From Bacteroidales bacterium (GTDB lineage: Bacteria > Bacteroidota > Bacteroidia > Bacteroidales > UBA932): a stretch of 42,510 bases of DNA. Below, piece by piece: positions 13,559 through 42,016 of this stretch. The notes under the pieces are model-generated. The model was given only the letters and a program-made list of their open reading frames with translations, did not search any database and was not told the origin of the DNA. The stretch spans positions 1 to 42,510 of the forward strand of contig JAFYEM010000049.1 of NCBI GenBank assembly GCA_017544265.1, in the 5' to 3' direction. Both the position numbers and the translations under genes were made by a program. Within the stretch, counting starts at the first letter, position 1, and the number at the start of each line of letters is the position of its first letter.

Positions 13559-13737
13559 TAATCGACAGGTGCTACGGCCCAGACAATCAGATAGGCCCAA
13601 AATCCGAATCCGCCGCCTATCAGGGCAATCAGAAACAGTATCCTGACGACGGTGACGTCAACATCGAGATAATTTGCAATGCCTGCACACACACCGGCGA
13701 TTTTCCTGTTCTGTCGGTCCAATACTAAACGTTTCAT
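13558..13737 (-). CDS. PspC-domain small membrane protein
   Basis: 59 residues from the ATG at 13737, preceded by a purine-rich GAAAAGAAA. The frame is open for 17 codons more, but those would be encoded by a palindromic repeat, so the shorter start is preferred. Residues 1-25 contain the PspC signature (NRKIAGVCAGIANYLDVD), and a single hydrophobic helix follows (VVRILFLIALIGGGFGFWAYLIVW). PspC-like proteins are small inner-membrane proteins tied to envelope-stress or toxin-regulation functions in other phyla. Its role in this lineage is not established. It overlaps the methyltransferase start by one base and lies downstream of lysS. Confidence 0.85.
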   Translation of the reverse strand: MKRLVLDRQNRKIAGVCAGIANYLDVDVTVVRILFLIALIGGGFGFWAYLIVWAVAPVD

Positions 13738-13750
13738 TTTCTTTTCTTTT

Positions 13751-13786
13751 GAGATTTCTCCCTGCGCTTCGCTTGGTCGAAATGAC
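13751..13786. repeat. 36-bp imperfect palindromic element between lysS and pspC
   Basis: The sequence has nested complementary arms: ATTTC (13754-13758) with GAAAT (13779-13783), CC (13761-13762) with GG (13775-13776), and GCG (13764-13766) with CGC (13770-13772) around CTT. The arms are symmetrical apart from short bulges. It resembles the dispersed GAGATTTCTC...TCGAAATGAC palindromes that I recall from intergenic regions of many Bacteroidota genomes; that recollection is not tested here. Only one copy occurs in the window. Confidence 0.55.
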
Positions 13787-13790
13787 AAGC

Positions 13791-15308
13791 TTAGAATTTT
13801 TCAGGTCTCATCGTGGGGAAGAAGAGCACGTCCTGGATAGTTTCAGCGCCGGTAAGGAACATGGTAAGACGGTCTATTCCGATGCCGATGCCGGAAGTCG
13901 GCGGCATGCCGAACTCCAGGGCGCGTACAAAATCGTAGTCAATATACATCGCCTCGTCATCTCCCTTGGACTTGAGCGCAGCCTGTTCCTCGAAACGGGA
14001 AAGCTGGTCCACAGGATCGTTCAGTTCGGAATAGGCATTCGCGAGTTCCTTGCCTGCGACAAACAGTTCGAAACGCTCGGTAAGGGAATCATCGTAGCGG
14101 CAGCGCTTGGTCAGAGGAGACATCTCCACCGGATAGTCAATTATAAATGTCGGCTGGATGAGATTCTTCTCGCAATAATCGCCGAAAATCGCGTCTATAA
14201 GCTTGCCCGCGCCCATGGTCGGATCCGTCTCGACCCCCAGTTTCGCGCAGGTGGCGCGGAGGGCCGCCTCGTCCATGCCGGCCACATCTACACCGGCATA
14301 TTCCTTAATCGCGTCAAGGATGCGGAGCCGGCGGTACGGCGCCCTGAAGTCTATCTTGTGGCCCATAACATCGGCCTCGGTCGTGCCGTTTGCCGCAATT
14401 GACACCTTTTCCAGCATATTCTCGGTGAACTGCATCATCCAGAGATAATCCTTGTAGGCGATATACATCTCCACGCAGGTGAACTCCGGATTGTGCGTCT
14501 TGTCCATACCTTCGTTGCGGAAATTCTTCGCGAACTCATAGACCCCGTCGAAGCCGCCGACAATCAGGCGCTTCAGGTACAGTTCATTGGCGATACGCAG
14601 ATACATGTCCACGTCCAACGCATTGTGGTGGGTGATGAAAGGCCTTGCGGTCGCGCCGCCGGGGATGGGCTGAAGGATTGGCGTTTCCACCTCCAGGCAG
14701 CCGGCAGAATTGAAAACTTCCTTCATCGCGGCGATAATCTTCGCCCTCTTGACGAACACGTCCTTGACGGAGGGATTCACTATCAGATCCACATACCTCT
14801 GGCGGTAGCGGAGCTCGGGGTCCGAGAATCCGTCGTGGACGGTGCCGTCCGCGTCGGTCTTTACGATGGGAAGCACCCGGAGCGACTTGGAAAGCACGGT
14901 GAGTTCTTTCGCATGCACCGACAGCTGGCCGGTCTGGGTAAAGAACGCAAAACCCCTTATGCCTATGATGTCGCCGATGTCGAGCAGTTTCTTGAAAACG
15001 GTGTTATAGAGCGTCTTGTCCTCGCCGGGGCATATTTCATCGCGCTTGATATAGACCTGGATGCGGCCCGTGGAGTCCTGCAGCTCGATGAAAGACGCCG
15101 CCCCCATTATCCGGCGCGACATGATGCGTCCTGCGATGGTCACATCCTGAAGATTGCCTTTCTCCGGGTCATATTCAGCGGCTATCTGCGCTGCGGTTGC
15201 ATTTACCTTATACTCCGCTGCGGGATAAGGATTGATACCCAGTTCCCTGAGCTTTCCGAGCGACTCTCTCCTTCCGAGTTCCTGTTCGTTCAATTCAATG
15301 TTTGCCAT
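13791..15308 (-). CDS. lysS: Lysine--tRNA ligase, class II
   Basis: 505 residues, the normal length for bacterial LysRS. An OB-fold anticodon-binding domain lies at about residues 55-160 ([32 protein letters not shown]). The class II catalytic core follows, with motif 1 ([18 protein letters not shown]), motif 2 ([20 protein letters not shown]) and motif 3 ([15 protein letters not shown]). It charges tRNA-Lys in the cytoplasm. The ATG at 15308 opens [15 protein letters not shown], which fits the family. It is divergent from the PCMD gene across 75 bp that hold back-to-back promoter elements, and pspC and trmH-like lie downstream on the same strand. Confidence 0.97.
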
Positions 15309-25217: not shown

Positions 25218-26018
25218 ATGAAAATTTTCGCTCTTATCGGCACCCCCCTTTCTGGCTCGCTGAGTCCATGTTTGATGAAAGCGGCGTATAATGGCCGGTA
25301 CCGTTACGATTTGTTAGATTCACCGGATTTCGACCTGGTCTGGGGGAGATTTCTCAAAGACTACAACGGGATAAACGTCACGGCTCCGTTCAAGGAAAGA
25401 GCTTTCCATGAGGTACTTCGCTCCGGAAAGGTCTCTCCGAATGCCGAGATAAGCGGCGCGGTGAACCTTGTGGTGAAAACTCCCGGAGGGCTCTATGGAC
25501 ATAACTGCGACGTGGACGGAATACTCAGCGCCATTACTCCTGCCGTCAATGCTTTAGGGACGGCTGGAAAAAAGCCCCGGGCTTTGGTGGTCGGCGCCGG
25601 AGGGGCAGGCCGTGCCGCCATAACTGCGGCCTTCATCGCCGGAATGGACGTCACTCTGGTGAACCGCACATACGAAAGGGCGACAGCTCTCTCGGAGGAA
25701 ATGGAGCAGCTATGGTTCAGCGTCAATCCCATGGAAGACCTTCGGGAGTGCATTCGCGGCGCAGACCTTGTAATCTACACTCTCCCCTGCCCGCTTGCGG
25801 GACTGGAAAAATATGATTTCCAGGGGAAGTGGGTGCTGGAAGCGAATTACAAGACTCCCTGCCTTAAAGACTTTTTCACAGGAAAAGAAAAGTCCGGAGG
25901 ATATATCTCCGGACTCGAATGGCTGCTCGGACAGGCTGCCGCCGGCTACTCTCTGTTCACCGGCGAAGAGCCCGACGTCACTGCAATGCGATCACAGCTG
26001 AAGACAAGGCGGGCATAG
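25218..26018 (+). CDS. aroE: Shikimate dehydrogenase
   Basis: 266 residues. Shikimate-binding motifs are present with small changes: PLSGSLSP at residues 8-15, NVTAPFKERAF near 54 (catalytic Lys) and HNCDVDGIL near 94 (catalytic Asp). The NADP-binding half has VVGAGGAGRAA near 130 and NRTYERA near 151. The C-terminus GLEWLLGQAAAGYSLFTGEEP closes the active site. It reduces 3-dehydroshikimate in aromatic amino acid synthesis. The usual GAxNT motif reads GAVNLV, a mild deviation. Its last 41 bp overlap the 3' end of the convergent amylase gene. Confidence 0.94.
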   Translation: MKIFALIGTPLSGSLSPCLMKAAYNGRYRYDLLDSPDFDLVWGRFLKDYNGINVTAPFKERAFHEVLRSGKVSPNAEISGAVNLVVKTPGGLYGHNCDVDGILSAITPAVNALGTAGKKPRALVVGAGGAGRAAITAAFIAGMDVTLVNRTYERATALSEEMEQLWFSVNPMEDLRECIRGADLVIYTLPCPLAGLEKYDFQGKWVLEANYKTPCLKDFFTGKEKSGGYISGLEWLLGQAAAGYSLFTGEEPDVTAMRSQLKTRRA

Positions 26019-28455
26019 CCAGTTTCCTGCCGTCTGAAGAGACAGAAAGCGGCGAATAGCTGTTGGAAATCAAGAGGTAAGGATTTCCTCCTGCCTTGGT
26101 CTTAAGTTCAGCCGCAGTTCCACTAAGCGACATATTTGCGGAAGGGACGCTGATGCCTCCCGGAAGAGTAACATCCACTTTCTCCCTTGAGAAATTGTGC
26201 AGTACAAGACACTTGCCGCTGCCGTCTTTTTCATTCATATACCATGCGGCGACCGCATTGCTTCCGGAACTTACCGGCTCCATACGCCCCTTGTAAAGGG
26301 CCGGCGTCTGGTTGCGGGCACTGGCGAAACGGCGGTAGAGGCTGAGTAGCGACTTGTCATCCGCGCCCTGCTCCTCGACAGAGCCGAGGGCCTTGAGCAT
26401 GGAATTATTGACCTTGGAGCCGAGAGGTGACGAAGCCAGGCGGCCGCCGGCGGTCCAGTACATAGGAGTACGGACATATTCATCTCCGTTATCCTTCACT
26501 CCCCAGTAGCCGAGTTCCTCACCCTGATAAATATAGGGCTTGCCCTCGGAGGTCAGCAGCACGGCCCCCGCGAGGCGGACCTTCTGGTCATTCTCTCCGA
26601 GGGTCGATGCGGCGCGGTTTTCATCATGGTTGGAGAGCTTGATTGCATCATAATAACCTGAGGAGTGGGCATACTTCCTCTGATTGTAGTTGCTTTCAAT
26701 CTTATTTCTGAAACCGACCACGGTGGAGGCGAAATCACTTCCCTTCCCTGAATTAATCCGGTCTGAAAGCGTCCACCAATAGTAGAAGTTAAAATGTGAA
26801 GGAAGGCCCTTGTAGTAAGGAGCCATCTGCTCCACAGAATCCGCCCAGGTTTCCGCGACCATATAGAGGTCGCCGCTGCGGCCGAGATTATGATAGGTCG
26901 TGTTGCAGTGGTCATACCACTTGGAGAGGAACTCCACATTTGCCTCGGTGTTACACTGATATATCCACATCACTGCATCCAGCCTGAGTCCGTTCACGCC
27001 CATGGTAATCCATTTGTCCGCCGTCCCGGCAAGGTCTATGAAAGCGGGAGAATTCTCGCACTGGAAGTATTTGCCGTAGTTCAGATCCGGCATGGACTTG
27101 TCGAAGGAAGCGAAGAAGTAGGAGGCCTTCCCGCCGAAAGTAATATTGGCGGCGGTGGTATTATTCAGCTTGAACGGCTTGTCGAACTCTATTCCAGAGC
27201 CGTCGCCGCCCCATTTTGTACCTCCGTCCCAAGAAGTACTTGAAGTCCGGACCAGGAAACCCCAGTCAGTGTTCATATCAACGGTTATCTCGTGGATACC
27301 GGAGGATGTTTCCTGCATTCCTACCGTCTTGTTCACATGAATCCATATTTTAGGGCTCCCGGCCGTCGGGGAAAGGTCCTGCCCGTCTGCCTTGGACACG
27401 GTGACGGTCTTTGCGTTCCAGTCCACCTTGAAATGGACACGGCCGGTGTAGCCGCCCCCTGTCGAAGTGACATGCCATCCGCCCATCACGGGATCCTTTC
27501 CTCCGGCGAAATTGTCCACATTCCCGTTTGCGACATCGGTCTTGTAATCATCTGAGAACACATAATACTTGCGATACTCGCTTTCAGGGTCCGCCACTGC
27601 CTGCTGGAACCACGGGCACTGGTCACCGCTGTGGTTGAGCACATAGTCCAGATATATGTCTATATTCTTGGCCTTTGCCTCATTCACCAGCTCCTGGAAC
27701 TTTTCCTCTGCCTTTGACTCGGTGGCATTTTTGCCGCCGAATTTGGCCCGGATAGAGGCATAATCGGTGATATCGTAGCTGTGGTAGCTCTGGGCCGGCT
27801 GTATCGGGGAAAGCCAGAGTGCGGACACACCCAGGGATTCGAAATAATCCAGATGGTCTATAATGCCTTGGAAGTCACCCCAGCCGTCGCCGTCGGAGTC
27901 CGCGAAACTATAGACATTGAGCTGATAGGTCAGGCCGGAGGGCCTTGTGGTCTCGGCTGCGGAAGCACCGGCGATTATGCCGCCTTTAAGCGGAATGCCG
28001 GCCTGGGCATGGGAGAAGTTCCCCCCGCTTTCCAGAACAACCATGATTCCGTTTACAGGAGCCAGATAGAAATCATATTTGCCTGCCTTTGAAATGCGGA
28101 AATTGCCGCCGCCCTGGGCGAGAGGAATCTCCTTGTCAAGGGCGAAGGAAACACCGGATGCGCCGAAATTGACGTCCCAGTTGCCGTTCTTGCGGAACTT
28201 GAATTCCGCATTTGCAGCGGCCTTGACGCCGAGGGCGATATGCCAGTCGCCTTTCATTTTGAGAGCGACATTGTTGCTGTTCCAGGAATCTTCTCCATTG
28301 ATTCCGGCTATGCTCCAGGGGCTCGACGTCGCACCTTCGGGATAGCTCACGCCCTCCTCCTCCTTCCCTGCTTTATCCTCCGGTTTCGGCTCGCTCTGGC
28401 AGGCCGCGGCAAACACCAGCACCGCCGTCAGCAGCATAAACACTATTTTTTTCAT
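25978..28455 (-). CDS. GH13 alpha-amylase lipoprotein with N-terminal starch-binding-like module
   Basis: 825 residues. Signal MKKIVFMLLTAVLVFAAAC; the mature start QSEPKPEDKAGKEEE is acidic, consistent with surface export. Residues about 45-145 form a SusE/F-like beta-sandwich (FKFRKNGNWDVNFGAS). The GH13 barrel starts near 174 (LTYQLNVYSFADSDGDGWGDF). Catalytic residues are intact: nucleophile Asp493 (GLRLDAVMW), acid/base Glu535 (MVAETWA) and Asp611 (LSNHDENRA). An insert at about 320-455 in domain B resembles the CBM58 insertion of Bacteroides SusG. A C-terminal beta-domain ends in SSAVIALQ. It is predicted to be an endo-acting starch hydrolase on the cell surface. Start spacing and AAGGA give a good ribosome-binding site. 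It is the last gene of the operon. Confidence 0.92.
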   Translation of the reverse strand: MKKIVFMLLTAVLVFAAACQSEPKPEDKAGKEEEGVSYPEGATSSPWSIAGINGEDSWNSNNVALKMKGDWHIALGVKAAANAEFKFRKNGNWDVNFGASGVSFALDKEIPLAQGGGNFRISKAGKYDFYLAPVNGIMVVLESGGNFSHAQAGIPLKGGIIAGASAAETTRPSGLTYQLNVYSFADSDGDGWGDFQGIIDHLDYFESLGVSALWLSPIQPAQSYHSYDITDYASIRAKFGGKNATESKAEEKFQELVNEAKAKNIDIYLDYVLNHSGDQCPWFQQAVADPESEYRKYYVFSDDYKTDVANGNVDNFAGGKDPVMGGWHVTSTGGGYTGRVHFKVDWNAKTVTVSKADGQDLSPTAGSPKIWIHVNKTVGMQETSSGIHEITVDMNTDWGFLVRTSSTSWDGGTKWGGDGSGIEFDKPFKLNNTTAANITFGGKASYFFASFDKSMPDLNYGKYFQCENSPAFIDLAGTADKWITMGVNGLRLDAVMWIYQCNTEANVEFLSKWYDHCNTTYHNLGRSGDLYMVAETWADSVEQMAPYYKGLPSHFNFYYWWTLSDRINSGKGSDFASTVVGFRNKIESNYNQRKYAHSSGYYDAIKLSNHDENRAASTLGENDQKVRLAGAVLLTSEGKPYIYQGEELGYWGVKDNGDEYVRTPMYWTAGGRLASSPLGSKVNNSMLKALGSVEEQGADDKSLLSLYRRFASARNQTPALYKGRMEPVSSGSNAVAAWYMNEKDGSGKCLVLHNFSREKVDVTLPGGISVPSANMSLSGTAAELKTKAGGNPYLLISNSYSPLSVSSDGRKLAMPALSSAVIALQ

Positions 28456-28470
28456 TCCTTAATTATTTTT

Positions 28471-28593
28471 ATCTGAAACAGGCTGTTTTGGTAGCGTGAC
28501 CGCCCGTGGTCCATGAACGGGAGGGGCCCAACCAACGGTTGGGAGGGACGAGCCCCAAAGGGGCGAAGGTGGACAAAACAGTCTGTTTCAGAT
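28471..28593. repeat. 123-bp structured inverted-repeat element between two amylase genes
   Basis: Terminal arms of 20 bp (28471-28490 and 28574-28593) are perfect inverted repeats apart from one G-T pair. Three further hairpins lie between them: CCCGT/ACGGG (28503-28507 with 28517-28521), CCCAACC/GGTTGGG (28527-28533 with 28537-28543) and GCCCC/GGGGC (28552-28556 with 28560-28564). No reading frame is present. A partial likeness occurs at 37161-37175. It has the form of a MITE- or REP-like element and would fold in the polycistronic mRNA. Confidence 0.8.
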
Positions 28594-28602
28594 TATTAAA
28601 CA

Positions 28603-31600
28603 TTACAAATCAAAAACGACGGAGGAGTAGGCAGGGAGGGTGACGCTGGAGCCGGAGACCCTGACCTTGCCGTTGGAAGCGAGAATATGACTGAGGTCGT
28701 TCAGATGAGATGAACGGTCCACGGTAATGTCCCAGCCACTCAGGTTATGAAGCACCAGGACAGTATTGCTCCAGTTCCCCACCTCGTGCATATACCATCA
28801 TGCAATATGCCCGTCGTAGTTGTTCTGCGTAATCTCATCCACTTCCGGTTCGCCGTTCGCAAGCGCCGGATGCGTATTGCGGGCAGCCGCGAAGTTGCGG
28901 TACAGGCTCAGCAGCGAGGTTTCATCCGCACTCTGGCGCTCCACCGAGATGGATGCTGTAAGCATACCCTTGTCCACCTTTCCGGAGAGTTTCTTTGAAG
29001 CAGCGCTGGAGAGGTTCGGGGTCCACAGAATCGGGGTGCGGACATACTCGTCACCTCCGGACTTGGTGCCCCAGTAGCCGAGTTCCTCGCCCTGATAGAT
29101 ATACGGCCGGCCCGGAGATGTCAGCAGCACACAGGCGGCAAGACGAATCTTGTTCTTGTTGTTGCCGAGCCAGGAGGCCGTGCGGTCCTCATCATGGTTG
29201 GAGAGCTTGGGAGTGGAAATGGCGTTGCCGCGCACTGCCCTGTGACCGTCCCAGCGTCCCTTCAGAGACTGCGGGAAGTTCATGTTGTAACCGGCGCGGT
29301 AGATGTCGCCGTTATTGATGCATTCGCGCAGATCCCACCAGAACTGGAACTCGAACAGGGCGGGCAGGCCTTCGTAGAACTTGGTGCAGTGGCCGTCGCC
29401 GGAGAGCACCTCTCCGACCATGAAGATATCCGAATCTGGATTGACAAGGCCGCTGCGCTTTGAAGAATACTTCTTGTAGAGGGTGTTGCAGGCATCATAG
29501 AACTTCTTCCAGAAGATTATGTTGTTCCGCCCCGCCTCGACATGATAGATATGCTTCACGGCATCCAGGCGGAAGCCGTCCACGCCCATCGCGAGCCACT
29601 TGTCAGCACTCTCGACTATCGCCTTGAAGGCCGCGGAATTCTGGCAGTTGTCCGCAGCGCCGTAGTTGAAGTCCACGAACATTCCGGTGCCGAACTCGGT
29701 ATAGTAGTAATAGAGTTCGCCGCCGGGCATGACTATGGACTGGACATTGACCGGATTGTTGTCCGAATACAGGGTATGGGCGACGCCGAGTTTCATCTGG
29801 TCGCCGGTGGTGTTGAAGCCCCACTTGGTCTTTCCGGTCCAGACATCTTCATTGGTGGTACGCACCAGGCAGCCCCATTCGGACTGGTAGTCCAGGGTGA
29901 GGGTGTATTTGCCTGTGCCGTTGTCCACGAACTGCGTGTAGGTGCCGTTGCCCCAGTAGAGATAGCGGGCCGGATTGTCCTTCGCTCCGCCGGTGGTGGG
30001 CTCCGCTGTCGTCTCCGTCACCGTCATCTTCGGAGCGGAGGAGTTCGTCCAGTCGAGGTCTATCTTGTAGCGTTTCTTTCCGCCGCCGCCCACGGTGACC
30101 GGATACCATTTGTAGCGGTCGTAATTGCGGTCGTCCACCTGGGCTATTTTCCCGCTCTGGCAGTCGCTCTGGGGATTCTTGGACAGGGAATAATAGTTCC
30201 AGTAAGGGCTCGCTGTCCCGTTCTGCTTGATATCCAGGAACCACTTGTTCTGGTCGCCGGAATGGTTCATCACATAGTCTATATAGATACGGATGTTGTG
30301 CTCGTGCGCCGTGGTGACAAGATTCTGGAAGTCCTCGATGGTGCCGAACTCGCGGTTCACGCTTTCATAGTCTGTCACGTCATAGCCGTGATAGCTCTGA
30401 GCGGGCTGGATCGGAGAAAGCCAGAGGGCGGTCACTCCGAGCTTGTCGAAATAGTCCATAGACTCGGTCAGGCCGTTGAAATCGCCGATTCCATCGTTAT
30501 TGGAGTCCTTGAAACTGAACACATTGACCTGATAGGTCAGGCCGCCCGCCTTGCTTGTCACAGGGATATTGTAATCCCCGCCGGCGGAGGTATAGTCGGG
30601 CTTGCCCTCTGCCTCATGGGTCCATGCCGTCCCGGCCTGGAGAATATAGGCAATGGCGTTCTCGACACATAGATAGACATCATATCTGCCGGTGGCGGAA
30701 ACGACCATATTGTTTCCTCCGGAGGTCAGAACTATCTTGTTGCCGACCGGCACTGAAGTAGTCGTATTGACATTTTCGCCGCAGCCGAAATTAGATGCCC
30801 ATGCGCGGTCCTGGCGGAACTTGAAGCCCTTTCCTGCGGCAAGGCTGACATCTTTCGCGACCTCCCAGTATCCCTGTGTGTCCATGGGAACGTCATCGAC
30901 AAAATTCCATCCGCCCACAGCGTCGCCCACTATGGACCATGCGCTGGTGCCGAAGGTAATCGGCTCGGGTTCCACGCCCTTGCCGCTGACGCCCGGCTCC
31001 AGCGGATCCTCGACCTTGGTCACCTTGGAGCCGTCCCAGACGAAATAGAGGGTGTTCATTATGGTGAGGCCCTTCCAGAGCGGCTCTTCTTCGCCGTCGG
31101 AAGGATACTGGTGGCGCTTTATCAGCGTTCCCCCTTCGTCCTTCTCGTCACCCTGGCCGTCATTGATTATGATATTGATGCCGCTGACGCCGTTGAAACC
31201 GGAGGCCTCCCAGTAAGTCCAGGTGTAGTCGCCTATCTGCTTGGTGCCGTTTGCATACATTCCCGGCCAGCGGCCGTAGGGCTCCAGTTCACCCTTTCCG
31301 GTGTAAGTATAGAGGAAAGGAGTCTTCCATGTGGAATTGTTGAGTATGAAAATCCTGACATTCTCCCCTATAGTCTGGTCCTGGGTAGCGTCGCCGTAGG
31401 CAAATTCTTCACCTGCTGTCAGTACATACAGAAGCATGAAGGTCGGATGCACGTAAAGGTCGTAGGTCCCGGCGGCAAGCTTGAAGTTATTGCCATTGTC
31501 CACCAGGGGATACTTCTTGTTGAGATAGGGCTGGTAGTTGGATGCACCGAGATTGGTGGTCCACTGCTGCTCCTTGCGGAATTTGAACTCCTGCCCGGCC

Positions 31601-32151
31601 TCGACCACGACATCGAAAGCCGCCATCCAGCCCGTAGGTTCAGCCAACATCGGAAGATCCTCCTCTCCGGCCAGGCTCCAGTTCAGGTTCATTATGCTGC
31701 CAGTTACTCCCCAGTCGGTAACAAGGGCGAAATCCTCGCGGGGAATGACCGTCCCCTTAGGGTCGGGAGTGTCGTCAGTGGGGTCTATCGAGGGATCATC
31801 CGGATTGACCTGCCCTGCCTTTGCCTGCTGGATGCTGAGGTTATAGACAGCTGTACCGGCGCGGAATGACACTCTGCCGAACCTCTTCTCCCCGGTGTTG
31901 GCCTCAACCGACACTGTTACATCCGTAGTGCCGCTGCCGCTCGAAGGCTTGACGGTAATCCACGCATCCGAGGGCTCAGCCGTCCAGTTGGAAGCATTTG
32001 TAGTAATTTTGACCGAAGCCTCGTCGGCAGTTCCGGCAAGGGATACTATTCCATCCTTTGCATCAGAGGAGAATGTAACGTCTTCTTGTTTCTCCTTGGT
32101 ACATGTAAACGCGACAAAGGCAACCGCGATTATGGCAAGAATTTTTTTCAT
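28603..32151 (-). pseudogene. Multi-modular GH13 amylase (SusG-like) gene interrupted by an in-frame TGA at 28798-28800
   Basis: 1117 residues are read before TGA, then 64 more in the same frame to TAA at 28603. Lipobox FTC (Cys17) is followed by TKEKQED. Modules: BACON at about 26-110; SusE/F-like beta-sandwich 145-245; CBM26-like 265-382 (VRIFILNNSTW, PYGRWPGM); second SusE/F-like 400-507; GH13 core 537-1045 with Asp863, Glu914 and Asp987 intact and a CBM58-like insert at about 680-815. The TGA falls inside the C-terminal beta-domain, in GHIA-stop-WYMHE, where the paralogue downstream reads AAWYMNE. The catalytic core is complete, so the truncated protein could still be active; 'pseudogene' is a cautious label. 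It lies 24 bp after the nucleoside kinase stop in one operon. Confidence 0.85.
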
Positions 32152-33867: not shown

Positions 33868-35168
33868 TGGTTGACCGATACCCAGAAATCGACCGGGTTT
33901 TTATGCAGGTGCAGATAGACGGTAAGACTGGCTCCGTCATCTACTCCTGACAATTCAATATTCTGTCCGCTGGCCGTCAGAGCCACATCGGAGGAAAACG
34001 GCAGCGGAACAGCATCCATCGAACCCATGCCATAGTCGCCCTGAGCCCAGTCATGGTTTTTCAGGAACTTGAACTGGAGGCCCGTCGTATAATTGAATTT
34101 GAACTCCCAGGTATCTTCACCTTCTGTCGTATAGTGAGCGGAACTCTCCACATAGCTCCACTCGTCTGAACCGCCGAAGTTGCCCATCAGCGACCAGTAA
34201 TCACCTCCCGGGGTATCTCCTCCGGGGGTGTCTCCCGGAGTGAAACTGTCCGGACTGATTACCTGGACTTCATAATGTCCGCTGCCGTCAGTAGAACTCA
34301 GTATATTGTAGAAGAAAGTGCTTCCGTCGGCAACTGCAACCGGACCGTAGTCCACCGTCTGCGCCCCTGAGCCGTTGGTGAAAATGATGTAGATATTGCC
34401 GAAGAATGACTCATCCAGTTCGAAGACTAAAAACTCGTTGCCGCTGACCGTTTCCGTTCCGCTGGCGCTCTTGTTTCCGGGCCAGTCGCTGCCGGTAAGG
34501 TTCCCTGTTTCGTTCCATGCCCAGAGATGCATTCCAGTACCCCAGCCGTGGGTATCATAGACATACAGCTTCGCGCCGCCGGGAGTGTCACCGCCAGGAG
34601 TATCTCCACCGGGTGTGTCACCGCCAGGGGTGTCTCCACCGGGTGTGTCACCGCCAGGGGTGTCGCCGCCAGGGGTGTCACCGCCAGGGGTGTCACCGCC
34701 AGGGGTGTCGCCGCCGCTTTTGCCTTTCCAGGCCTTTACTTCAATGGAATAGGCACCGCCCTTTTTCGCGTCAGCGATAGTATGGGTGGCGGGATTGCCG
34801 GAGGCATCGACCTCTATGCCTTTTTCCTTCGACACGAACCAGAAGGGGTCCGCGAGGGTTTTTCCGCCAATGAAGTCATTGGGGTCCAGATAAGCGGCAA
34901 GCACATTTCCGCCCTTGGAAGAACGGGCGAGCTTGAACGCAGCAGCATTCTCCTGACCGCCGGTGACTGCCCCGGCAAGATAGATGACGTCTGTGGAAGA
35001 TGTCGATGATGGAAGCGTCACTTCAATCAGGATGTTGTCTTTGTCGCCGGGGAAGATCTTCCCGTCCTCGACTTGTGCTTCTTTATCCTTGTTGCAGGCC
35101 GTTACGGCAGAGATTGCCATAGCCGCAAAGGAAAAAAGTTGAAGAATTCTTTTCATATTGATATGCAT
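33864..35168 (-). CDS. Starch-binding-like lipoprotein with (GGDTP)9 linker
   Basis: 434 residues from ATG 35168, which shares one base with the TAA of the upstream gene; ATG 35156 would start at MKRILQLFSFAAMA. The lipobox is TAC followed by NKDKEAQVED, an acidic start consistent with surface export. Modules: an Ig-like domain at about 45-147 resembling SusE, a linker of nine GGDTP units (152-196), a CBM26-like module 200-305 (MHLWAWNETG, SDWPGN), a second short linker, and a SusF-like starch-binding sandwich 324-434 (QFKFLKNHDWAQGDYGMG). No catalytic motif is present. It probably binds starch at the surface as SusE/SusF do, although no SusD is encoded nearby. Confidence 0.87.
   Translation of the reverse strand: MHINMKRILQLFSFAAMAISAVTACNKDKEAQVEDGKIFPGDKDNILIEVTLPSSTSSTDVIYLAGAVTGGQENAAAFKLARSSKGGNVLAAYLDPNDFIGGKTLADPFWFVSKEKGIEVDASGNPATHTIADAKKGGAYSIEVKAWKGKSGGDTPGGDTPGGDTPGGDTPGGDTPGGDTPGGDTPGGDTPGGDTPGGAKLYVYDTHGWGTGMHLWAWNETGNLTGSDWPGNKSASGTETVSGNEFLVFELDESFFGNIYIIFTNGSGAQTVDYGPVAVADGSTFFYNILSSTDGSGHYEVQVISPDSFTPGDTPGGDTPGGDYWSLMGNFGGSDEWSYVESSAHYTTEGEDTWEFKFNYTTGLQFKFLKNHDWAQGDYGMGSMDAVPLPFSSDVALTASGQNIELSGVDDGASLTVYLHLHKNPVDFWVSVNQ
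34581..34715 (-). repeat. Nine tandem 15-bp units encoding GGDTP
   Basis: Nine consecutive 15-bp units run from 34581 to 34715 in the linker of the starch-binding lipoprotein. Units differ only at third positions (for example GTGTC/GTATC and ACCGCC/TCCACC), so the repeat is old enough to have drifted but remains prone to unit gain or loss. A change of one unit keeps the frame. Confidence 0.9.
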
Positions 35169-37129
35169 TATCTTTTAAATTCAACCACCAGCGCCGTTTT
35201 CGCCGGAACTACGGTCGCATCGGAGAGCGTAACGCTTTCCCCTGTCAGTACGTCCGTCCCTTCGGAAGCCCCGGACAGGAAGCCGGAATAGCGGGTCCAG
35301 TCCAGTTTCCGCTCCGACGTCGCATTGTTTATATAGACAAAAACCGCGTCGCTGTCGTCATAACGATAGTAAGCGTAAGTGTTGTCAGTTATGTTGCGGG
35401 CGCCTTCGTTCCTGCGGGAAAGGTAGTGGATTGTACTGCCGTTCCAGATGACAGGACACTCTTTGCGCCAGTTGAAAAGGCGCGCGGCGTAGTCGTGAAG
35501 TTCAGCCGCCTGAGGATTGCCGGCGCGGCCCTCCTCCGTGAAGAGGTCTTCAGCATCGCCTTCCCATCCCCCTGGGAAGTCTATCCGTTTGCTCCCGTCA
35601 TGCGAGGAGCGGGAGGACTCCATGAACATCATTTCATCGCCGTAATAAAGCTGCGGAATGCCCCTCAGGGTTGCGAGCATGGTGAGCGCGAGCTTCATCT
35701 TACGAGGGTCACCTCCGAAGATGTCACCGGTACGGGGATGGTCGTGGTTGGCGAAGAAAATCATCATATTGGAGAGGTCTTTATAGACAAAATCCTGCGC
35801 CAGAATGCTGTATATGCGGGTCATGCCTTCGCTCCACCACACTTCGTCCTCGCAGAGGGCGGTGATCATGGCGTCTCTCAAGGGGAAGTCCATTATGGAC
35901 GGCAGATTGGAGTTGAAACCGTTCTTGTTCGGATTGTCTTTCTGCCAGTAGGCCAGCTGAGGGACCACGGCGTCCCAGCACTCGCCGACTATATTGAGAT
36001 TCGGATACTCGTCTGTCAGGGCCTTGCACCACTGAGACATGGGGCCGGGCTCATTGTAAGGATAGGTATCCACCCTGAGGCCGTCCAGGTCCGCATATTC
36101 GACCCACCAGACAGCCCATTGCTGGAAATATTTCAGCAGATAGGGATTGTCCAGATTCATATCCGGCATTGACGGGACGAACCAGCCGCTCTCCTGCCTC
36201 ATTCTGTCGTCGGGGGCTGCCGCGGGGTCCATATAGACCGAAAACAGGGCGTTCATCTGGACATGCTCGGGGAAAGTATGGATCCAGTCCCGGAAAGGCA
36301 TATCCTTCATCCACCAGTGCTCCGTGCCGCAGTGGTTCGTGACTATGTCCATGATGACCTTGAGGCCCTTCCCGTGGGCTTTTTCCACGAAGTCGCAGTA
36401 AAGAGCGTTGTCGCCGAAGCGCGGATCCGTATGGTAATAGTCGCTGCAGGCATAGCCATGGTAGGATTCCCGCTTCTGGTTGTCCAGCAGCAGCGGAGTG
36501 CTCCAAATTGCCGTGGCGCCGAGTTCAGCGATATAATCCAGATGGTCTATGATGCCCTGCAGGTCGCCGCCATGCCGCGAAAGGGCGGAACTGCGGTCGC
36601 TTGTTTCCTTCATCTGAGGGACAGTCCACGCCCTGGCGGAACCGTCGCCATAGACCTTGTCGGGGTACTGGTCGTCATTGGCGGGATTGCCGTTGGAGAA
36701 GCGGTCCGGCATCAGCAGATAGATCATGTCCGCAGAGGAGAAACTCTTCCTCGCGGAACTTCCTTCCCTGCGCCGCCTGATCAGATAGGGATACTTGAAA
36801 AGGTCCTTCCCCTCCTTTGAAAACACCAGATAGCGTATACCTTCGGCGGCATTTGCATCGACCTCCATGTCGGCAAAGATGAAATTCGGGTTTTCCGCCG
36901 GAGTAAGCTTCGTCAGTTTCATGCCGCCACCTTCCACCCTGAGCTCCAGTCCGGCTATTTCCGGGCCCTGAATCAGCAGCTGCAGCGGAGTCCTCATCCC
37001 GGCCCACCAGCTGAGGGGCTCGACCCTCTGCACCTGGTCTGCGGCGTCAGGCACGCTTTCGGGCACGAACTTCTGTCCGCAGCCGAAAAGTGCCATAGAC
37101 ACCAGCAACACTATCGTCAGCTTTTTCAT
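35168..37129 (-). CDS. GH13 cyclomaltodextrinase/neopullulanase-type lipoprotein
   Basis: 653 residues from ATG 37129, preceded by an AGGTGA ribosome-binding site; seven upstream in-frame codons lack one. Signal MKKLTIVLLVSMALFGC, then GQKFVPE without an acidic run. An N-terminal Ig-like domain (PLSWWAGMRTPLQLLIQG) of the cyclomaltodextrinase type occupies about 30-120. The GH13 barrel begins MIYLLMPDRFSNGNP; catalytic residues are Asp354 (LDGLRVDTYPY), Glu383 (NIVGECWDA) and Asp463 (FANHDHPRTGD). A C-terminal beta-domain ends KTALVVEFKR. Enzymes of this group cleave cyclodextrins, pullulan or maltooligosaccharides, as Bacteroides SusA does in the periplasm. Probably periplasmic here. Confidence 0.93.
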   Translation of the reverse strand: MKKLTIVLLVSMALFGCGQKFVPESVPDAADQVQRVEPLSWWAGMRTPLQLLIQGPEIAGLELRVEGGGMKLTKLTPAENPNFIFADMEVDANAAEGIRYLVFSKEGKDLFKYPYLIRRRREGSSARKSFSSADMIYLLMPDRFSNGNPANDDQYPDKVYGDGSARAWTVPQMKETSDRSSALSRHGGDLQGIIDHLDYIAELGATAIWSTPLLLDNQKRESYHGYACSDYYHTDPRFGDNALYCDFVEKAHGKGLKVIMDIVTNHCGTEHWWMKDMPFRDWIHTFPEHVQMNALFSVYMDPAAAPDDRMRQESGWFVPSMPDMNLDNPYLLKYFQQWAVWWVEYADLDGLRVDTYPYNEPGPMSQWCKALTDEYPNLNIVGECWDAVVPQLAYWQKDNPNKNGFNSNLPSIMDFPLRDAMITALCEDEVWWSEGMTRIYSILAQDFVYKDLSNMMIFFANHDHPRTGDIFGGDPRKMKLALTMLATLRGIPQLYYGDEMMFMESSRSSHDGSKRIDFPGGWEGDAEDLFTEEGRAGNPQAAELHDYAARLFNWRKECPVIWNGSTIHYLSRRNEGARNITDNTYAYYRYDDSDAVFVYINNATSERKLDWTRYSGFLSGASEGTDVLTGESVTLSDATVVPAKTALVVEFKR

Positions 37130-37147
37130 ATTCACCTGTCTATTTTT

Positions 37148-37155
37148 CAAAGGTA
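37148..37155 (-). promoter_or_regulatory. Possible internal promoter -7 element (TACCTTTG) before the cyclomaltodextrinase gene
   Basis: An exact TAnnTTTG match on the minus strand, 18 bp before the ATG at 37129, in the 54-bp gap after the upstream amylase. The nearest -33 candidate is at an unfavourable 23 bp. It would let the downstream five genes be expressed separately. Confidence 0.4.
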
Positions 37156-37183: not shown

Positions 37184-38599
37184 TTATTTGGAAAGTACTA
37201 GATAGTCGCCGGGGGCGAGGGTGATCAGCCTGTCTCCTTCGAGCTTTTCGCCCGTAAACACATTGGTGTACTTGCCGTCAAGCTTTATAGTCATGGTGAC
37301 AGGCTCGGCCTGAAGATTGCGGAAAGGCGCGGCATTGACCTCGCCCTGAGGGCGGTTGTCATTGGCCTCGGCCTGCACGGCAGGAGCCTCCTGAGGCTCT
37401 GCGGAGCCGAAGGAAGCAAGGACTATAACCTTGTTGCCCTTCACCTCGCGATGGAATGCCACCCAGCCTTCGGGAGCTTCCCACCAGACAATTTCGCCTC
37501 CCCTCTCACCGGCCGCGAGAGCCGGATTATTGTGCTTGAGGTCCACAAGGGCCTTCCAGAAAGCAGTCTGCCCATTGGGGCTCCAGTCCGTTATGGAATC
37601 CTTCTCGAAGAAGGCGAGACGGCGGCTCAGGCCTATTTCCTGGCCGGTGTAGATGAGCGGCTGGCCGGCGGGGAGAGTGAAGCAGAGCACGGCGCAGGCG
37701 TTTGCCGCGGCACCTTCCCTCTCGAACTCAGTTCCGGCCCAGGAATTCTCATCGTGGTTGGACGTGAACATAAGGCGGAACTGCTCTTTGAAGCGGGCGG
37801 CGTCACGTGCAACGTAATCTTTCAGGTCCTGGACACTCTTTCCGCCCTGGGCCAGGCCGTTCAGCAGATGATGCAGTTCCCAGGCATAGTTCGCATCGAA
37901 GGTTTCCCTCGGATCGGCGATATTGTCGCGTTCCGCCTCGGCGAGGAGATAGATGTCAGGATAGTCGGCCTTGATTCCGGGAAGGATGCCCTTCCAGAAC
38001 TCTGCCGGGACGTCGCCGGCAGCATCGCAGCGGAATCCGTCCACTCCCTTGCCGAGCCAGAAGCGCATTGCATCGTCCTGGGCGGCCCATACTTCCCTGC
38101 ACTCGTAATTGAGGCTGCGGGTATCCGTCCAGTCATACTCCCAGATGGCGTTCCCGTTTTCATCCCTTTCGTAGAACTCGGCAGGCTTTTCGTACATCCA
38201 AACATTGTCCGGGGCCGTCTGGTTGGCAACCCAGTCGAGAATCACCTTGAAGCCGAGCCTGTGAGCCTCGGCAACCAGATGCTCGAAATCCTCCATTGTC
38301 CCGAATTCGGGATTGACCTTCTTGTAGTCGGCAATCGCATAGTACGAACCGAGAGTGCCTTTACGGCCTTCTACGCCGATTTTATACATCGGCATCAGCC
38401 ACAGCACGTCCACGCCGAGTTCTTTCAGGCGGGGCAGCTGGCCTTCGAAAGCCTTGAATGTTCCTTCGGGAGTGAACTGGCGGATATTCACCTCATAGAC
38501 TACGCTGTCGTATGTCCATTCGGGGTGCAGCGCCTCGGGGGCCTTGCCGCAGGCAGCCAGGGCGAGGGCTGCGGAAATAATTACAAGTAGTTTTCTCAT
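37184..38599 (-). CDS. GH13 alpha-amylase family lipoprotein (compact, single catalytic domain)
   Basis: 471 residues. Signal MRKLLVIISAALALAAC, then GKAPEALHP. The GH13 barrel starts directly (TYDSVVYEVNIRQFTPEGTF) without accessory modules. Catalytic residues: Asp192 (GVDGFRCDAAGD), Glu221 (IYLLAEAERD) and Asp283 (FTSNHDENSWAG). The short B domain and the ENSW context differ from the two large amylases. The C-terminal beta-domain ends GDYLVLSK. It probably acts on short maltodextrins in the periplasm, inferred from the absence of binding modules and of an acidic export signal. It is the first gene of the starch operon, separated from the upstream receptor by a strong terminator. I see no clear promoter in the short leader. 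Confidence 0.92.
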   Translation of the reverse strand: MRKLLVIISAALALAACGKAPEALHPEWTYDSVVYEVNIRQFTPEGTFKAFEGQLPRLKELGVDVLWLMPMYKIGVEGRKGTLGSYYAIADYKKVNPEFGTMEDFEHLVAEAHRLGFKVILDWVANQTAPDNVWMYEKPAEFYERDENGNAIWEYDWTDTRSLNYECREVWAAQDDAMRFWLGKGVDGFRCDAAGDVPAEFWKGILPGIKADYPDIYLLAEAERDNIADPRETFDANYAWELHHLLNGLAQGGKSVQDLKDYVARDAARFKEQFRLMFTSNHDENSWAGTEFEREGAAANACAVLCFTLPAGQPLIYTGQEIGLSRRLAFFEKDSITDWSPNGQTAFWKALVDLKHNNPALAAGERGGEIVWWEAPEGWVAFHREVKGNKVIVLASFGSAEPQEAPAVQAEANDNRPQGEVNAAPFRNLQAEPVTMTIKLDGKYTNVFTGEKLEGDRLITLAPGDYLVLSK

Positions 38600-38698: not shown

Positions 38699-41600
38699 TT
38701 AGAACATGTACTTTATGCCCAGCTGGAGGTACCAGCACTGGCCGTAGGCATGATTGTAGTCGAAGGTACGGCGGGATTTGGATGTATTGAAAAGATCCAC
38801 CACCTTTCCGTTCGAATTATATTTGGTCGTATAGACAGGCTTTTTGCCGTCCATGTGGTCGAGTACGAGAATCTGGCCTACCGTACCGTAGTTGCCGGTC
38901 GTCACATAGTCCGAGAATGTCTTTTCCACGCCCCAGCGGGAGTTTACCAGGTTGAGGGCGTTCCAGAAGTCCGCGCTGAGGCGGATGATGTTCTGCTGGC
39001 GGCCGATCTTGAACTTGAAGTCATAGGCATAGCGGAAGTCCAGACGATGCACCATCGGAGCATGGACCGCATAGGCCTCGGCATACTGTCCCTTGTGGGA
39101 AGAAAGGTACTTGTCCTGCTCCACGAAGCTCCAGAAGAGATCCCTCTGGTCTTCGGAAACGAAGGCAAGTTCGTTCTTGTCCTTGGGAATATAGACAAGG
39201 TCCATGGCGATTCCGTCGCCGTTCACATCGTTCTGATAGCAGTAGCTCAGGCCGCCGGGGACATAACCTTCATAGAAGAGGGAGAAGTGGCTGTTGCCTG
39301 GAGACCAGGTCAGGGAGGCCATCACGCGGTGGGGAATCACATACTGGGAATTGTGGAGCTGCATGTAATTGGGGCCGTTGACGGTGGGGATTCCCTGATA
39401 GGCGGAAGATGCCGCGCTGCCGGGCATGCCGGTCAGTTCCTTCGAAGCAGTGTAGGTGTAGGAAGCGGTCAGGCGCAGATTCTCAAGCGGGGACATGTCC
39501 AGTCCGACAGTCGCGAGATAACCGTAGCCCTTGTCCGTATTGGTGAGCACGAACGCGTCACTGCCATTGAGGACATAATCCTTGACCGTCTTGTTTGCTT
39601 CATTCTTGTGGGAAGGATAGATGTAACGATTGTCACCGCCTTCCATCTTCTCAAACTTGGTCGCGTCCTTGATGTCGTAGTTTGTCAGCAGGGTGCCGTT
39701 GACGGTTTTGTTGAAAGTGAATTCGCCACTGACGGTGAAGGGGAAGGGCACGGGAATATCATAGTCGATTCCGATGGTGCTCTTCCAGACCTGGGGCATC
39801 TTGAACTCACGGTCCACCGCATTGATCTGGTAAGGCAGGACTCCTTCCTTGGGGGCGTCCTTGGGAAATTTATCGGCGGATATTCCGTTCAGCTTGTCCA
39901 CCAAATCAGAGGGTTTTGTAATCATCTTGCCGGCAAACTGCTTCAGGGCCTCGTCACCGGAGGTAATCATGGCCTGCATCTGGATCATACCGGAGTTGGT
40001 GGGCATATTGGTCAGGAACACCAGGGGAAGACGGCCGAGGAAGAGGCCTGTACCGCCACGTACCTTCAGCGAACCGTCGCCGAGTACATCCCAGTTGAAG
40101 CCTATGCGGGGAGACACCTGGACCCTGGTTTTCGGCCACAGGCCGACGTCAATTTTCTTGCCGTCAAAGTCCAGCGCCGCAATCTTGGGATTTGCAATGA
40201 GGTCATTGTTGTCGAAGATGATTGTATCCAGACGGAGACCAGCTGTGAGTTTGAACTTGTCGGAGATGCTCCATTCATCCTGGGCGTAGGCCGCAAGCTG
40301 ATGGAAACGCACTTTTGCGGAAGGATTCAGCTGACCGCCGTAACCATAGGTGATACCAACTGATTCGGGAGCTTTCTGCTGGAGGAAATCATCGAGGCTG
40401 GCGTAACGGTAATATCCGGTTCCGCTTCGCATATAGGAGTTGTCCGCATACTGGAATTCATAACTAAGACCGGCAGTAAGCTTGTGGGCGCCGAAATTCA
40501 TGGTCACATCGTCCTTGACGGTTACGACGTGGTTGTGGACCGCGTTGTTATATGAGAACAACTCATGGCCGAACGACAAGTAGGGAGTCATCTTCGAGCC
40601 GGTACCCGCGCTGCTGTCCATGATGTCCACGAAGGGGAAGATGTCGCAGTTGGCTTCCCTCCAGTCGTGGATATTGCTGTAGGTGGCGAGCAGCTGGTTG
40701 GAGACGTTGTCGCTCAGACGGCTGTTCAGGTCCAGGGAAGCGGAATGAACTTCATTGTGCTGCCAGTAATCGGAACCGTTGAAATACATCGAAGACTCCG
40801 ATGCGCGGTTGATATAGATTCGCGGCTTGGCGTCGGTGGAGTTGCCGCTGACGGGGTTCGCCTGCTTGTTGCCGGTAAAATTGTACCTCAAGGCCAGATG
40901 ATGCTTGTCGGTTATGTTCCAGTCGATTCGGGCGAGGAGCTTGAGATTGTTCTCGTTGGAGGAGAAGTTCTTGTAGGAACCCGGATTGAAGCTGTACTGG
41001 TCGAGATGCTCTATGACCTTGTCCATATCCTTGTCCAGGGTCCTGGAAATCATCTGGTTCTTGTTGGCTACGCCGTCTGTGGAAACTCTCCAGCGGTTGG
41101 TCACCGTGGGAATGATGCTGTACTCGGCATTGACGAAGAAGAAGAGTTTGTTCTTGACGATGGGACCGCCGAAGGTTAGGCCGAAGAGGGTGTTGCGGTC
41201 CACAAGGCGGGCGCCCAGATCCTCGTTGGCAACACGGTTGCCGTGCATATTCTCATTGGCATGATAGGCATACGCGCTGCCGTGGAACTCATTGGTACCG
41301 GATTTGGTGATGGCGTTCACGCCGCCGCCGATGAAGTTCGTCTGCCTTACGTCGAAGGGAGAAACCACAATCTGGATTTCCTCGATAGCGTCTATTGAAA
41401 TAGGATTTCCGCCGCCGGGAAGGTCCTCGTTCAGGCCGAAATTGTTGTTGAAATTCGAGCCGTCAACGGTGAAGTTGGTGCTGCGTCCGTCGCTTCCGCC
41501 GAAACTCATTCCGTTGCCGCCGTAAGGAGAAATACGGGCGATGTCGGCGATGCTGCGGGTGGTATTGGGAATTGACATGATCTCATCCCTGGAGATATTG

Positions 41601-42016
41601 GTCGATGCCCCGGTCTTGGTACCGGTGAACTTCGAATCCTTGTCCGCGGTAACGACCACCGCCTCGATCTGCTCGGCATTATCGGCGAGTTTGACGTCGA
41701 AGTTGACAGGGTCTCCCAGACTGAGAGTAACGTCGTTATATGTGACCGGCTGGTACCCGAGGCACAGATATTCGATCTTGTAGGGGCCGCCGGCGCGGAG
41801 TCCAGTTATGAAATAATGGCCGTCCGCATTTGTGACCACCCCGTAATAGGTCCCTGAAGGAACGTGGGTCGCCACTATGGCCACGCCCGGGACGGGTGCT
41901 CCATATATGTCGGTAACCTTGCCGTCAAGCGAAGCCGTGGTCACCTGCGCATAAAGAGAGATTCCTGCAAACAATGTAATGGTTGCGAGGATTAAGCGGT
42001 TGAAAATAGACTTCAT
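38699..42016 (-). CDS. TonB-dependent receptor, Oar-like, with N-terminal carboxypeptidase-regulatory domain
   Basis: 1105 residues. The signal peptide MKSIFNRLILATITLFAG is cut near LYAQ. Residues about 28-112 form a carboxypeptidase-like regulatory sandwich (LDGKVTDIYGAPVPGVAIVA, TNADGHYFITGLRAGGPYKI). The plug follows to about 240 (IEAVVVTADKD, DEIMSIPNTTRSIADIARISP, IEEIQIVVSPFDVRQ). A large barrel ends in WYLQLGIKYMF. It differs from SusC by its plug (VDGSNFNNNFGLNE) and by having no SusD partner, and matches the Oar-type receptors of myxobacteria and Bacteroidota. Substrate unknown; its place before the starch operon suggests, without proof, oligosaccharide uptake. Confidence 0.93.
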   Translation of the reverse strand: MKSIFNRLILATITLFAGISLYAQVTTASLDGKVTDIYGAPVPGVAIVATHVPSGTYYGVVTNADGHYFITGLRAGGPYKIEYLCLGYQPVTYNDVTLSLGDPVNFDVKLADNAEQIEAVVVTADKDSKFTGTKTGASTNISRDEIMSIPNTTRSIADIARISPYGGNGMSFGGSDGRSTNFTVDGSNFNNNFGLNEDLPGGGNPISIDAIEEIQIVVSPFDVRQTNFIGGGVNAITKSGTNEFHGSAYAYHANENMHGNRVANEDLGARLVDRNTLFGLTFGGPIVKNKLFFFVNAEYSIIPTVTNRWRVSTDGVANKNQMISRTLDKDMDKVIEHLDQYSFNPGSYKNFSSNENNLKLLARIDWNITDKHHLALRYNFTGNKQANPVSGNSTDAKPRIYINRASESSMYFNGSDYWQHNEVHSASLDLNSRLSDNVSNQLLATYSNIHDWREANCDIFPFVDIMDSSAGTGSKMTPYLSFGHELFSYNNAVHNHVVTVKDDVTMNFGAHKLTAGLSYEFQYADNSYMRSGTGYYRYASLDDFLQQKAPESVGITYGYGGQLNPSAKVRFHQLAAYAQDEWSISDKFKLTAGLRLDTIIFDNNDLIANPKIAALDFDGKKIDVGLWPKTRVQVSPRIGFNWDVLGDGSLKVRGGTGLFLGRLPLVFLTNMPTNSGMIQMQAMITSGDEALKQFAGKMITKPSDLVDKLNGISADKFPKDAPKEGVLPYQINAVDREFKMPQVWKSTIGIDYDIPVPFPFTVSGEFTFNKTVNGTLLTNYDIKDATKFEKMEGGDNRYIYPSHKNEANKTVKDYVLNGSDAFVLTNTDKGYGYLATVGLDMSPLENLRLTASYTYTASKELTGMPGSAASSAYQGIPTVNGPNYMQLHNSQYVIPHRVMASLTWSPGNSHFSLFYEGYVPGGLSYCYQNDVNGDGIAMDLVYIPKDKNELAFVSEDQRDLFWSFVEQDKYLSSHKGQYAEAYAVHAPMVHRLDFRYAYDFKFKIGRQQNIIRLSADFWNALNLVNSRWGVEKTFSDYVTTGNYGTVGQILVLDHMDGKKPVYTTKYNSNGKVVDLFNTSKSRRTFDYNHAYGQCWYLQLGIKYMF

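What the first reader, a model, noticed from the sequence alone, without database searches (positions are those of the whole stretch)
28789..28806. In-frame TGA in the largest amylase, apparently a 3-bp ATG duplication
On the minus strand the gene reads GGG CAT ATT GCA TGA TGG TAT; the same frame continues for 64 codons that match the C-terminal beta-domain of the paralogue at 25978-28455, which reads GCC GCA TGG TAT ATG. Removing one ATG from GCATGATGG restores GCATGG. Nothing else in the gene is damaged, and the catalytic residues are intact. The options are a recent loss of the last 65 residues, a slippage-prone on/off site, stop read-through, or an assembly error.
Basis: seen in the sequence. 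Interest (0 to 1): 0.75.

Follow-up and report, generated by a model that had tools for sequence, protein, structure and literature searches.

The report
Premature stop in starch-digesting enzyme
A starch-digesting enzyme gene of a gut bacterium carries an early stop signal where related bacteria have an ordinary building block, so it is most likely a simple recent mutation (or a sequence error) that cuts off the enzyme's last domain, and not a duplicated "ATG" or an on/off switch.

Summary
The in-frame TGA is real in the assembled sequence (window 28800-28798, minus strand), and the same frame stays open for 64 more codons that encode the SusG C-terminal domain. The proposed cause is wrong. 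In 23 of 23 distinct homologues that cover the site (55-73% identical there), a sense codon occupies the TGA column and none has a gap (18 Gly, 3 Ala, 1 Cys, 1 Ser). The stop is a substitution inside an existing codon, not a 3-bp ATG duplication. The tail after the stop shows no decay (0 of 14 otherwise invariant columns changed), so the stop is young or the consensus base is wrong. TGA looks like a normal stop in this genome: it ends 76 of 204 sampled long ORFs, none of the seven best-scoring TGA extensions except this one continues a gene, and RF2 is present. No reads and no close strain were available (best-scoring relatives 73% DNA), so a true nonsense allele and a consensus error cannot be separated; I favour the allele. 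Ordinary, low interest. In passing: the spacer downstream holds an unexplained dispersed, strongly structured repeat.

The parts
28798..32151 (-). SusG-like GH13 alpha-amylase gene, 1117 aa up to the premature TGA (BACON domain, further N-terminal region, GH13 catalytic domain with inserted CBM58)
28798..28800 (-). in-frame premature TGA; homologous codon is Gly in 18, Ala in 3, Cys in 1, Ser in 1 of 23 homologues
28603..28797 (-). 64 open codons plus TAA after the stop, encoding the SusG_C (domain C) region; no sign of decay
35168..37150 (-). context: GH13 with cyclomaltodextrinase N- and C-terminal domains, same strand
37184..38599 (-). context: further GH13 protein, same strand
38699..42016 (-). 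context: TonB-dependent outer-membrane receptor, same strand

Best explanation
The gene is an ordinary SusG-like alpha-amylase of a gut (probably ruminant) Bacteroidales starch locus, in which a base substitution turned a codon that relatives use mostly for glycine into TGA. Shown: the stop replaces an existing codon near the start of domain C, and TGA behaves as a stop elsewhere in the sampled part of this genome. Inferred: the assembled strain makes a 1117-residue protein lacking domain C, probably unstable or weakened, while the open paralogue next door and other GH13 enzymes of the locus cover starch digestion. The mutation is recent, because the orphaned tail still looks conserved.
For: Codon present in 23 of 23 homologues, gap in 0. 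GGA, one substitution from TGA, makes up 22 of the 111 Gly codons of this gene and stands at the site in 2 of 23 homologues. Tail: 0 of 14 invariant columns changed; tail/head divergence ratio 1.50, inside the 0.88-1.72 range of the 23 others. TGA ends 76 of 204 sampled ORFs; of 21 TGA extensions of 30 codons or more, the seven best-scoring were examined and only this one continues a gene. RF2 present at 458 bits, cut-off 370. Open paralogue beside it.
Against: No read data and no strain-level relative (best-scoring matches 73% identical over about 880-890 bases), so a wrong consensus base would look the same. The undecayed tail fits an error, or read-through, as well as a young mutation. The commonest codon at the site in relatives is GGC (16 of 23), which is two substitutions from TGA. 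Loss of function of the truncated enzyme was not tested.
Confidence: 0.62

Rival explanations
1. Consensus or assembly error: the sampled population has an intact gene and one base of this draft contig is wrong.
For: The genome is a draft of 65 contigs, 90.5% complete. The tail is undamaged, and no other interrupted gene was found among the extensions examined, which fits an isolated single-base error as well as a young mutation.
Against: Nothing specific; single-base consensus errors are uncommon in good short-read assemblies (recalled).
Confidence: 0.3
2. Three-base ATG duplication, with a slippage-prone on/off site.
For: Taking one ATG unit out of GCATGATGG gives letters that resemble the paralogue.
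Against: The column is filled in 23 of 23 homologues with no gap; two of them (L055, L060) read DGHIAGWY where the window reads DGHIA*WY. The paralogue also aligns without a gap. Two units of three bases are not a slippage tract and would not shift the frame.
Confidence: 0.01
3. TGA is decoded here (UGA as glycine as in genetic code 25, selenocysteine, or programmed read-through), giving full-length enzyme, perhaps at a low level.
For: The column is glycine in 18 of 23 homologues and the tail looks conserved.
Against: TGA ends 76 of 204 sampled ORFs, and the six other best-scoring TGA extensions are the next gene (4) or belong to shadow frames antisense to gyrB and a class II tRNA synthetase gene (2). 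RF2 is present. No tRNA-Sec over cut-off. No UCA anticodon among the tRNAs typed, though the tRNA set of the draft is incomplete. No homologue of the 23 has a stop here.
Confidence: 0.03
4. Adaptive truncation: a stable, secreted amylase without domain C.
For: The stop falls near the start of the SusG_C model, and the related family GH77 naturally lacks domain C (passage of PMC11046441).
Against: None of the 23 homologues does this. Of six further homologues, chosen from matches that ended early, none was found to end at this site. The tail has not decayed.
Confidence: 0.04

Closest known systems
SusG, GH13 alpha-amylase (PDB 3k8k, 3k8m, 3k8l, 6bs6, 9fz0; from Bacteroides thetaiotaomicron, recalled)
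   Same: residues 533-1182 of the protein read with X at the stop align end to end (E 7.8e-146), with CBM58 and SusG_C
   Different: an extra N-terminal part with a BACON domain; premature TGA near the start of domain C, where the SusG chain has Ala
UGA-to-glycine code of Absconditabacteria and Gracilibacteria (PMC8629427, passages only)
   Same: a TGA stands in a column that is mostly glycine
   Different: one gene only in the sample; TGA is a common normal stop; RF2 present; no such tRNA seen in an incomplete set
Ordinary single-nonsense pseudogenes in bacterial genomes (general knowledge)
   Same: isolated stop, otherwise open reading frame, paralogue present
   Different: none seen

Membership tests
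SusG-like GH13 alpha-amylase | GH13 barrel with CBM58 and SusG_C terminal domain encoded in one frame | tested here: met
   (PF00128, PF20756, PF23915); SusG_C lies only after the stop
SusG-like GH13 alpha-amylase | translated protein includes domain C | tested here: not met
   under table 11 the protein ends at residue 1117, before the SusG_C match
Nonsense pseudogene or allele | stop replaces a codon that is sense in relatives | tested here: met
   23 of 23
Nonsense pseudogene or allele | lesion present in the DNA of the organism, not only in the assembly | not testable with these tools
   no reads; no close strain
Slippage (phase-variable) site | tandem repeat whose unit number changes the reading | tested here: not met
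   no extra unit relative to homologues or paralogue
UGA reassigned to an amino acid (code 4 or 25) | TGA rare as a stop and frequent in-frame, RF2 lost | tested here: not met
   76 of 204 sampled ORFs end in TGA; RF2 present
UGA reassigned to an amino acid (code 4 or 25) | tRNA with UCA anticodon | tested here: inconclusive
   ARAGORN named a tRNA at 29 of 30 loci, none UCA; seven amino acids have no tRNA among them
Selenoprotein | tRNA-Sec in the genome | tested here: not met
   0 of 5 matches over cut-off; genome 90.5% complete, so absence is not certain

The most novel reading that the evidence does not exclude
The stop is leaky or decoded, so the cell makes both a domain-C-less and a full-length surface amylase from one gene; the conserved tail would then be under present selection.
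Probability: 0.03. Interest if true: 0.6.

Novelty: new member of a known kind. Interest (0 to 1): 0.1.

Why it matters
It matters little beyond annotation: the gene should be marked as a candidate pseudogene or checked for a consensus error, and not cited as slippage or recoding. The case shows that one paralogue is a poor guide to insertion versus substitution; 23 homologues settle it.

Tried and rejected
ATG duplication: rejected on the homologue alignment. UGA recoding and selenocysteine: rejected on stop usage, RF2 and tRNA searches, with the caveat of an incomplete tRNA set. Normal terminus shared by homologues: rejected. Natural relatives that end here: six homologues chosen from matches that ended early were fetched (not all early-ending matches were). 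By coordinates L152, L153 and L157 run to a contig end, and the frame of L154 (238 codons) is longer than its match; by sequence L156 diverges near a contig end and L155 is broken elsewhere in the gene. Restart at the in-frame ATG three codons after the stop: considered, and not thought useful, because such a fragment would lack the signal peptide (inference). Pairwise dN/dS of the tail: synonymous sites near saturation or undefined, so uninformative. Nearer relatives: 400 genus genomes and 398 relatives (draws overlap) gave best-scoring matches of 73% identity; shorter matches reach higher identity. Literature: searches were seen as listings; I noticed no paper on loss of domain C in SusG there, which is no proof of absence. 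Passages only of PMC4963412, PMC11046441 and PMC8629427 were read. Rows dropped: L078 (partial, codon GGC) and L012/L048 (do not reach the site) are not in the 23; matches under 54% identity are not in the 23, but those fetched before one search were seen there and show a sense codon at the site. Structure prediction was not run.

Full report
What is there. On the minus strand the ORF 28798-32151 encodes 1117 residues and ends in TGA (28800-28798). The frame then stays open for 64 codons to a TAA at 28605-28603. The protein starts with a lipoprotein-like signal (MKKILAIIAVAFVAFTC, my reading) and carries a BACON domain, a GH13 alpha-amylase domain with CBM58 and, only after the stop, SusG_C. 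It aligns with SusG of known structure from residue 533 to 1182, across the stop. Same-strand neighbours include a SusG-like paralogue, two further GH13 proteins, a CBM26 protein and a TonB-dependent receptor: a starch utilisation locus. The named relatives are Bacteroidales or Bacteroidia assemblies; 10 of 22 record titles name a ruminant.

How the stop arose. With the homologues the picture is different. [quoted passage not shown] Some may be paralogues, and L069 and L071 are nearly identical. All 23 have a sense codon and none a gap: GGC 16, GGA 2, GCC 2, GCT 1, TGC 1, TCC 1, that is Gly 18, Ala 3, Cys 1, Ser 1. L055 and L060 read DGHIAGWY where the window reads DGHIA*WY. The more distant homologues fetched, and the paralogue, also have a residue there. 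So the stop is a substitution inside an existing codon. In this gene 72 of 1117 codons are one substitution from TGA, 22 of them GGA.

How old it is. In the tail 14 columns are invariant among the 23 homologues and the window keeps all 14. In the aligned part before the stop it departs at 1 of 95. Its tail-to-head divergence ratio, 1.50, lies inside the range 0.88-1.72 of the other sequences. Tail codon usage scores 0.195, near the median of 0.19 for the sampled ORFs. Nothing suggests relaxed constraint. Since the best-scoring relatives are far (73% DNA), this only says that the stop is young compared with that long branch, or not in the organism at all.

Is TGA a stop here? Over the window plus 20 stretches (299,838 bases) I kept 204 largely non-overlapping ORFs of 150 codons or more: 76 end in TGA, 72 in TAA, 56 in TAG. 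The set holds some shadow frames: at least two were recognised later. An in-frame extension of 30 codons or more follows 21 TGA, 28 TAA and 26 TAG stops, so TGA is not enriched. The 30 best-scoring extensions were printed; seven follow TGA, and all seven were examined. One is this gene. One is the next gene, a STAS-like protein by my reading. Three are next genes with their own Pfam domains: a nuclease after a repeat protein, a SusD-like protein after a TonB receptor, and a GH20 enzyme after a release-factor gene. In the last two the upstream ORF is a shadow frame, antisense to gyrB and to a class II tRNA synthetase gene (lysS by my reading). The other 14 TGA extensions scored under 0.018 and were not examined. 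Three TAA/TAG cases with little overlap were the next gene (ribosomal S10 and L23, my reading) or an extension after a complete protein end. RF2 is present. tRNA-Sec has no match over its cut-off. ARAGORN named a tRNA at 29 of 30 tRNA loci, none with anticodon UCA, but tRNAs for Ala, Asp, Asn, His, Ile, Trp and Tyr were not among them, so the set is incomplete. The known UGA-to-Gly codes are those of Absconditabacteria and Gracilibacteria (passages of PMC8629427). Recoding is very unlikely.

What it does. By the ordinary code the product lacks domain C, a C-terminal beta-sandwich in GH13 enzymes (passages of PMC4963412 and PMC11046441). That this weakens the enzyme is inferred, not shown. Another broken SusG-like gene occurs in the genus: in L155 a GH13 gene, cut at a contig start, changes frame with a missing stretch before the GDEYVRTP motif.

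Verdict. The two main explanations left are a recent nonsense substitution (favoured, 0.62) and a single wrong consensus base (0.30), and only reads or strain-level data can separate them. Interest is low.

Noticed in passing
window 28470-28594, between the two amylase genes: A dispersed element: a core of about 75-80 nt with three predicted hairpins. The own genome gives 16 matches at E <= 0.001, this one and seven others at 83-89% identity over 63-90 bases, the rest shorter; 30 of 41 genomes searched (own and 40 of the genus) have a match, many of them short. In the window copy and six others folded, a long outer stem encloses the core; it is complementary within each copy but differs in sequence between copies. 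RNA folding z-scores are -5.4 to -7.7 in 7 of 7, though in one (L091) the predicted core fold differs. No Rfam family at gathering score. It looks like a structured element sitting in the loop of varying terminator-like hairpins; unexplained.
   Followed up: partly
L155 (G038:C11), bases 1-2000: A SusG-like GH13 gene in another genome of the genus changes reading frame, with a missing stretch just before its GDEYVRTP motif: a second damaged amylase, by a different lesion.
   Followed up: partly
own genome G000: Only 30 tRNA matches; Ala, Asp, Asn, His, Ile, Trp and Tyr tRNAs were not among those typed, so the draft seems to lack part of the tRNA set despite 90.5% estimated completeness.
   Followed up: no
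window 13674-14402 (+) and L105 131-1774 (+): Long open shadow frames run antisense to a class II tRNA synthetase gene (window 13791-15308, minus) and to gyrB (L105 2-1705, minus); purely mechanical ORF lists of this genome contain such frames.
   Followed up: yes
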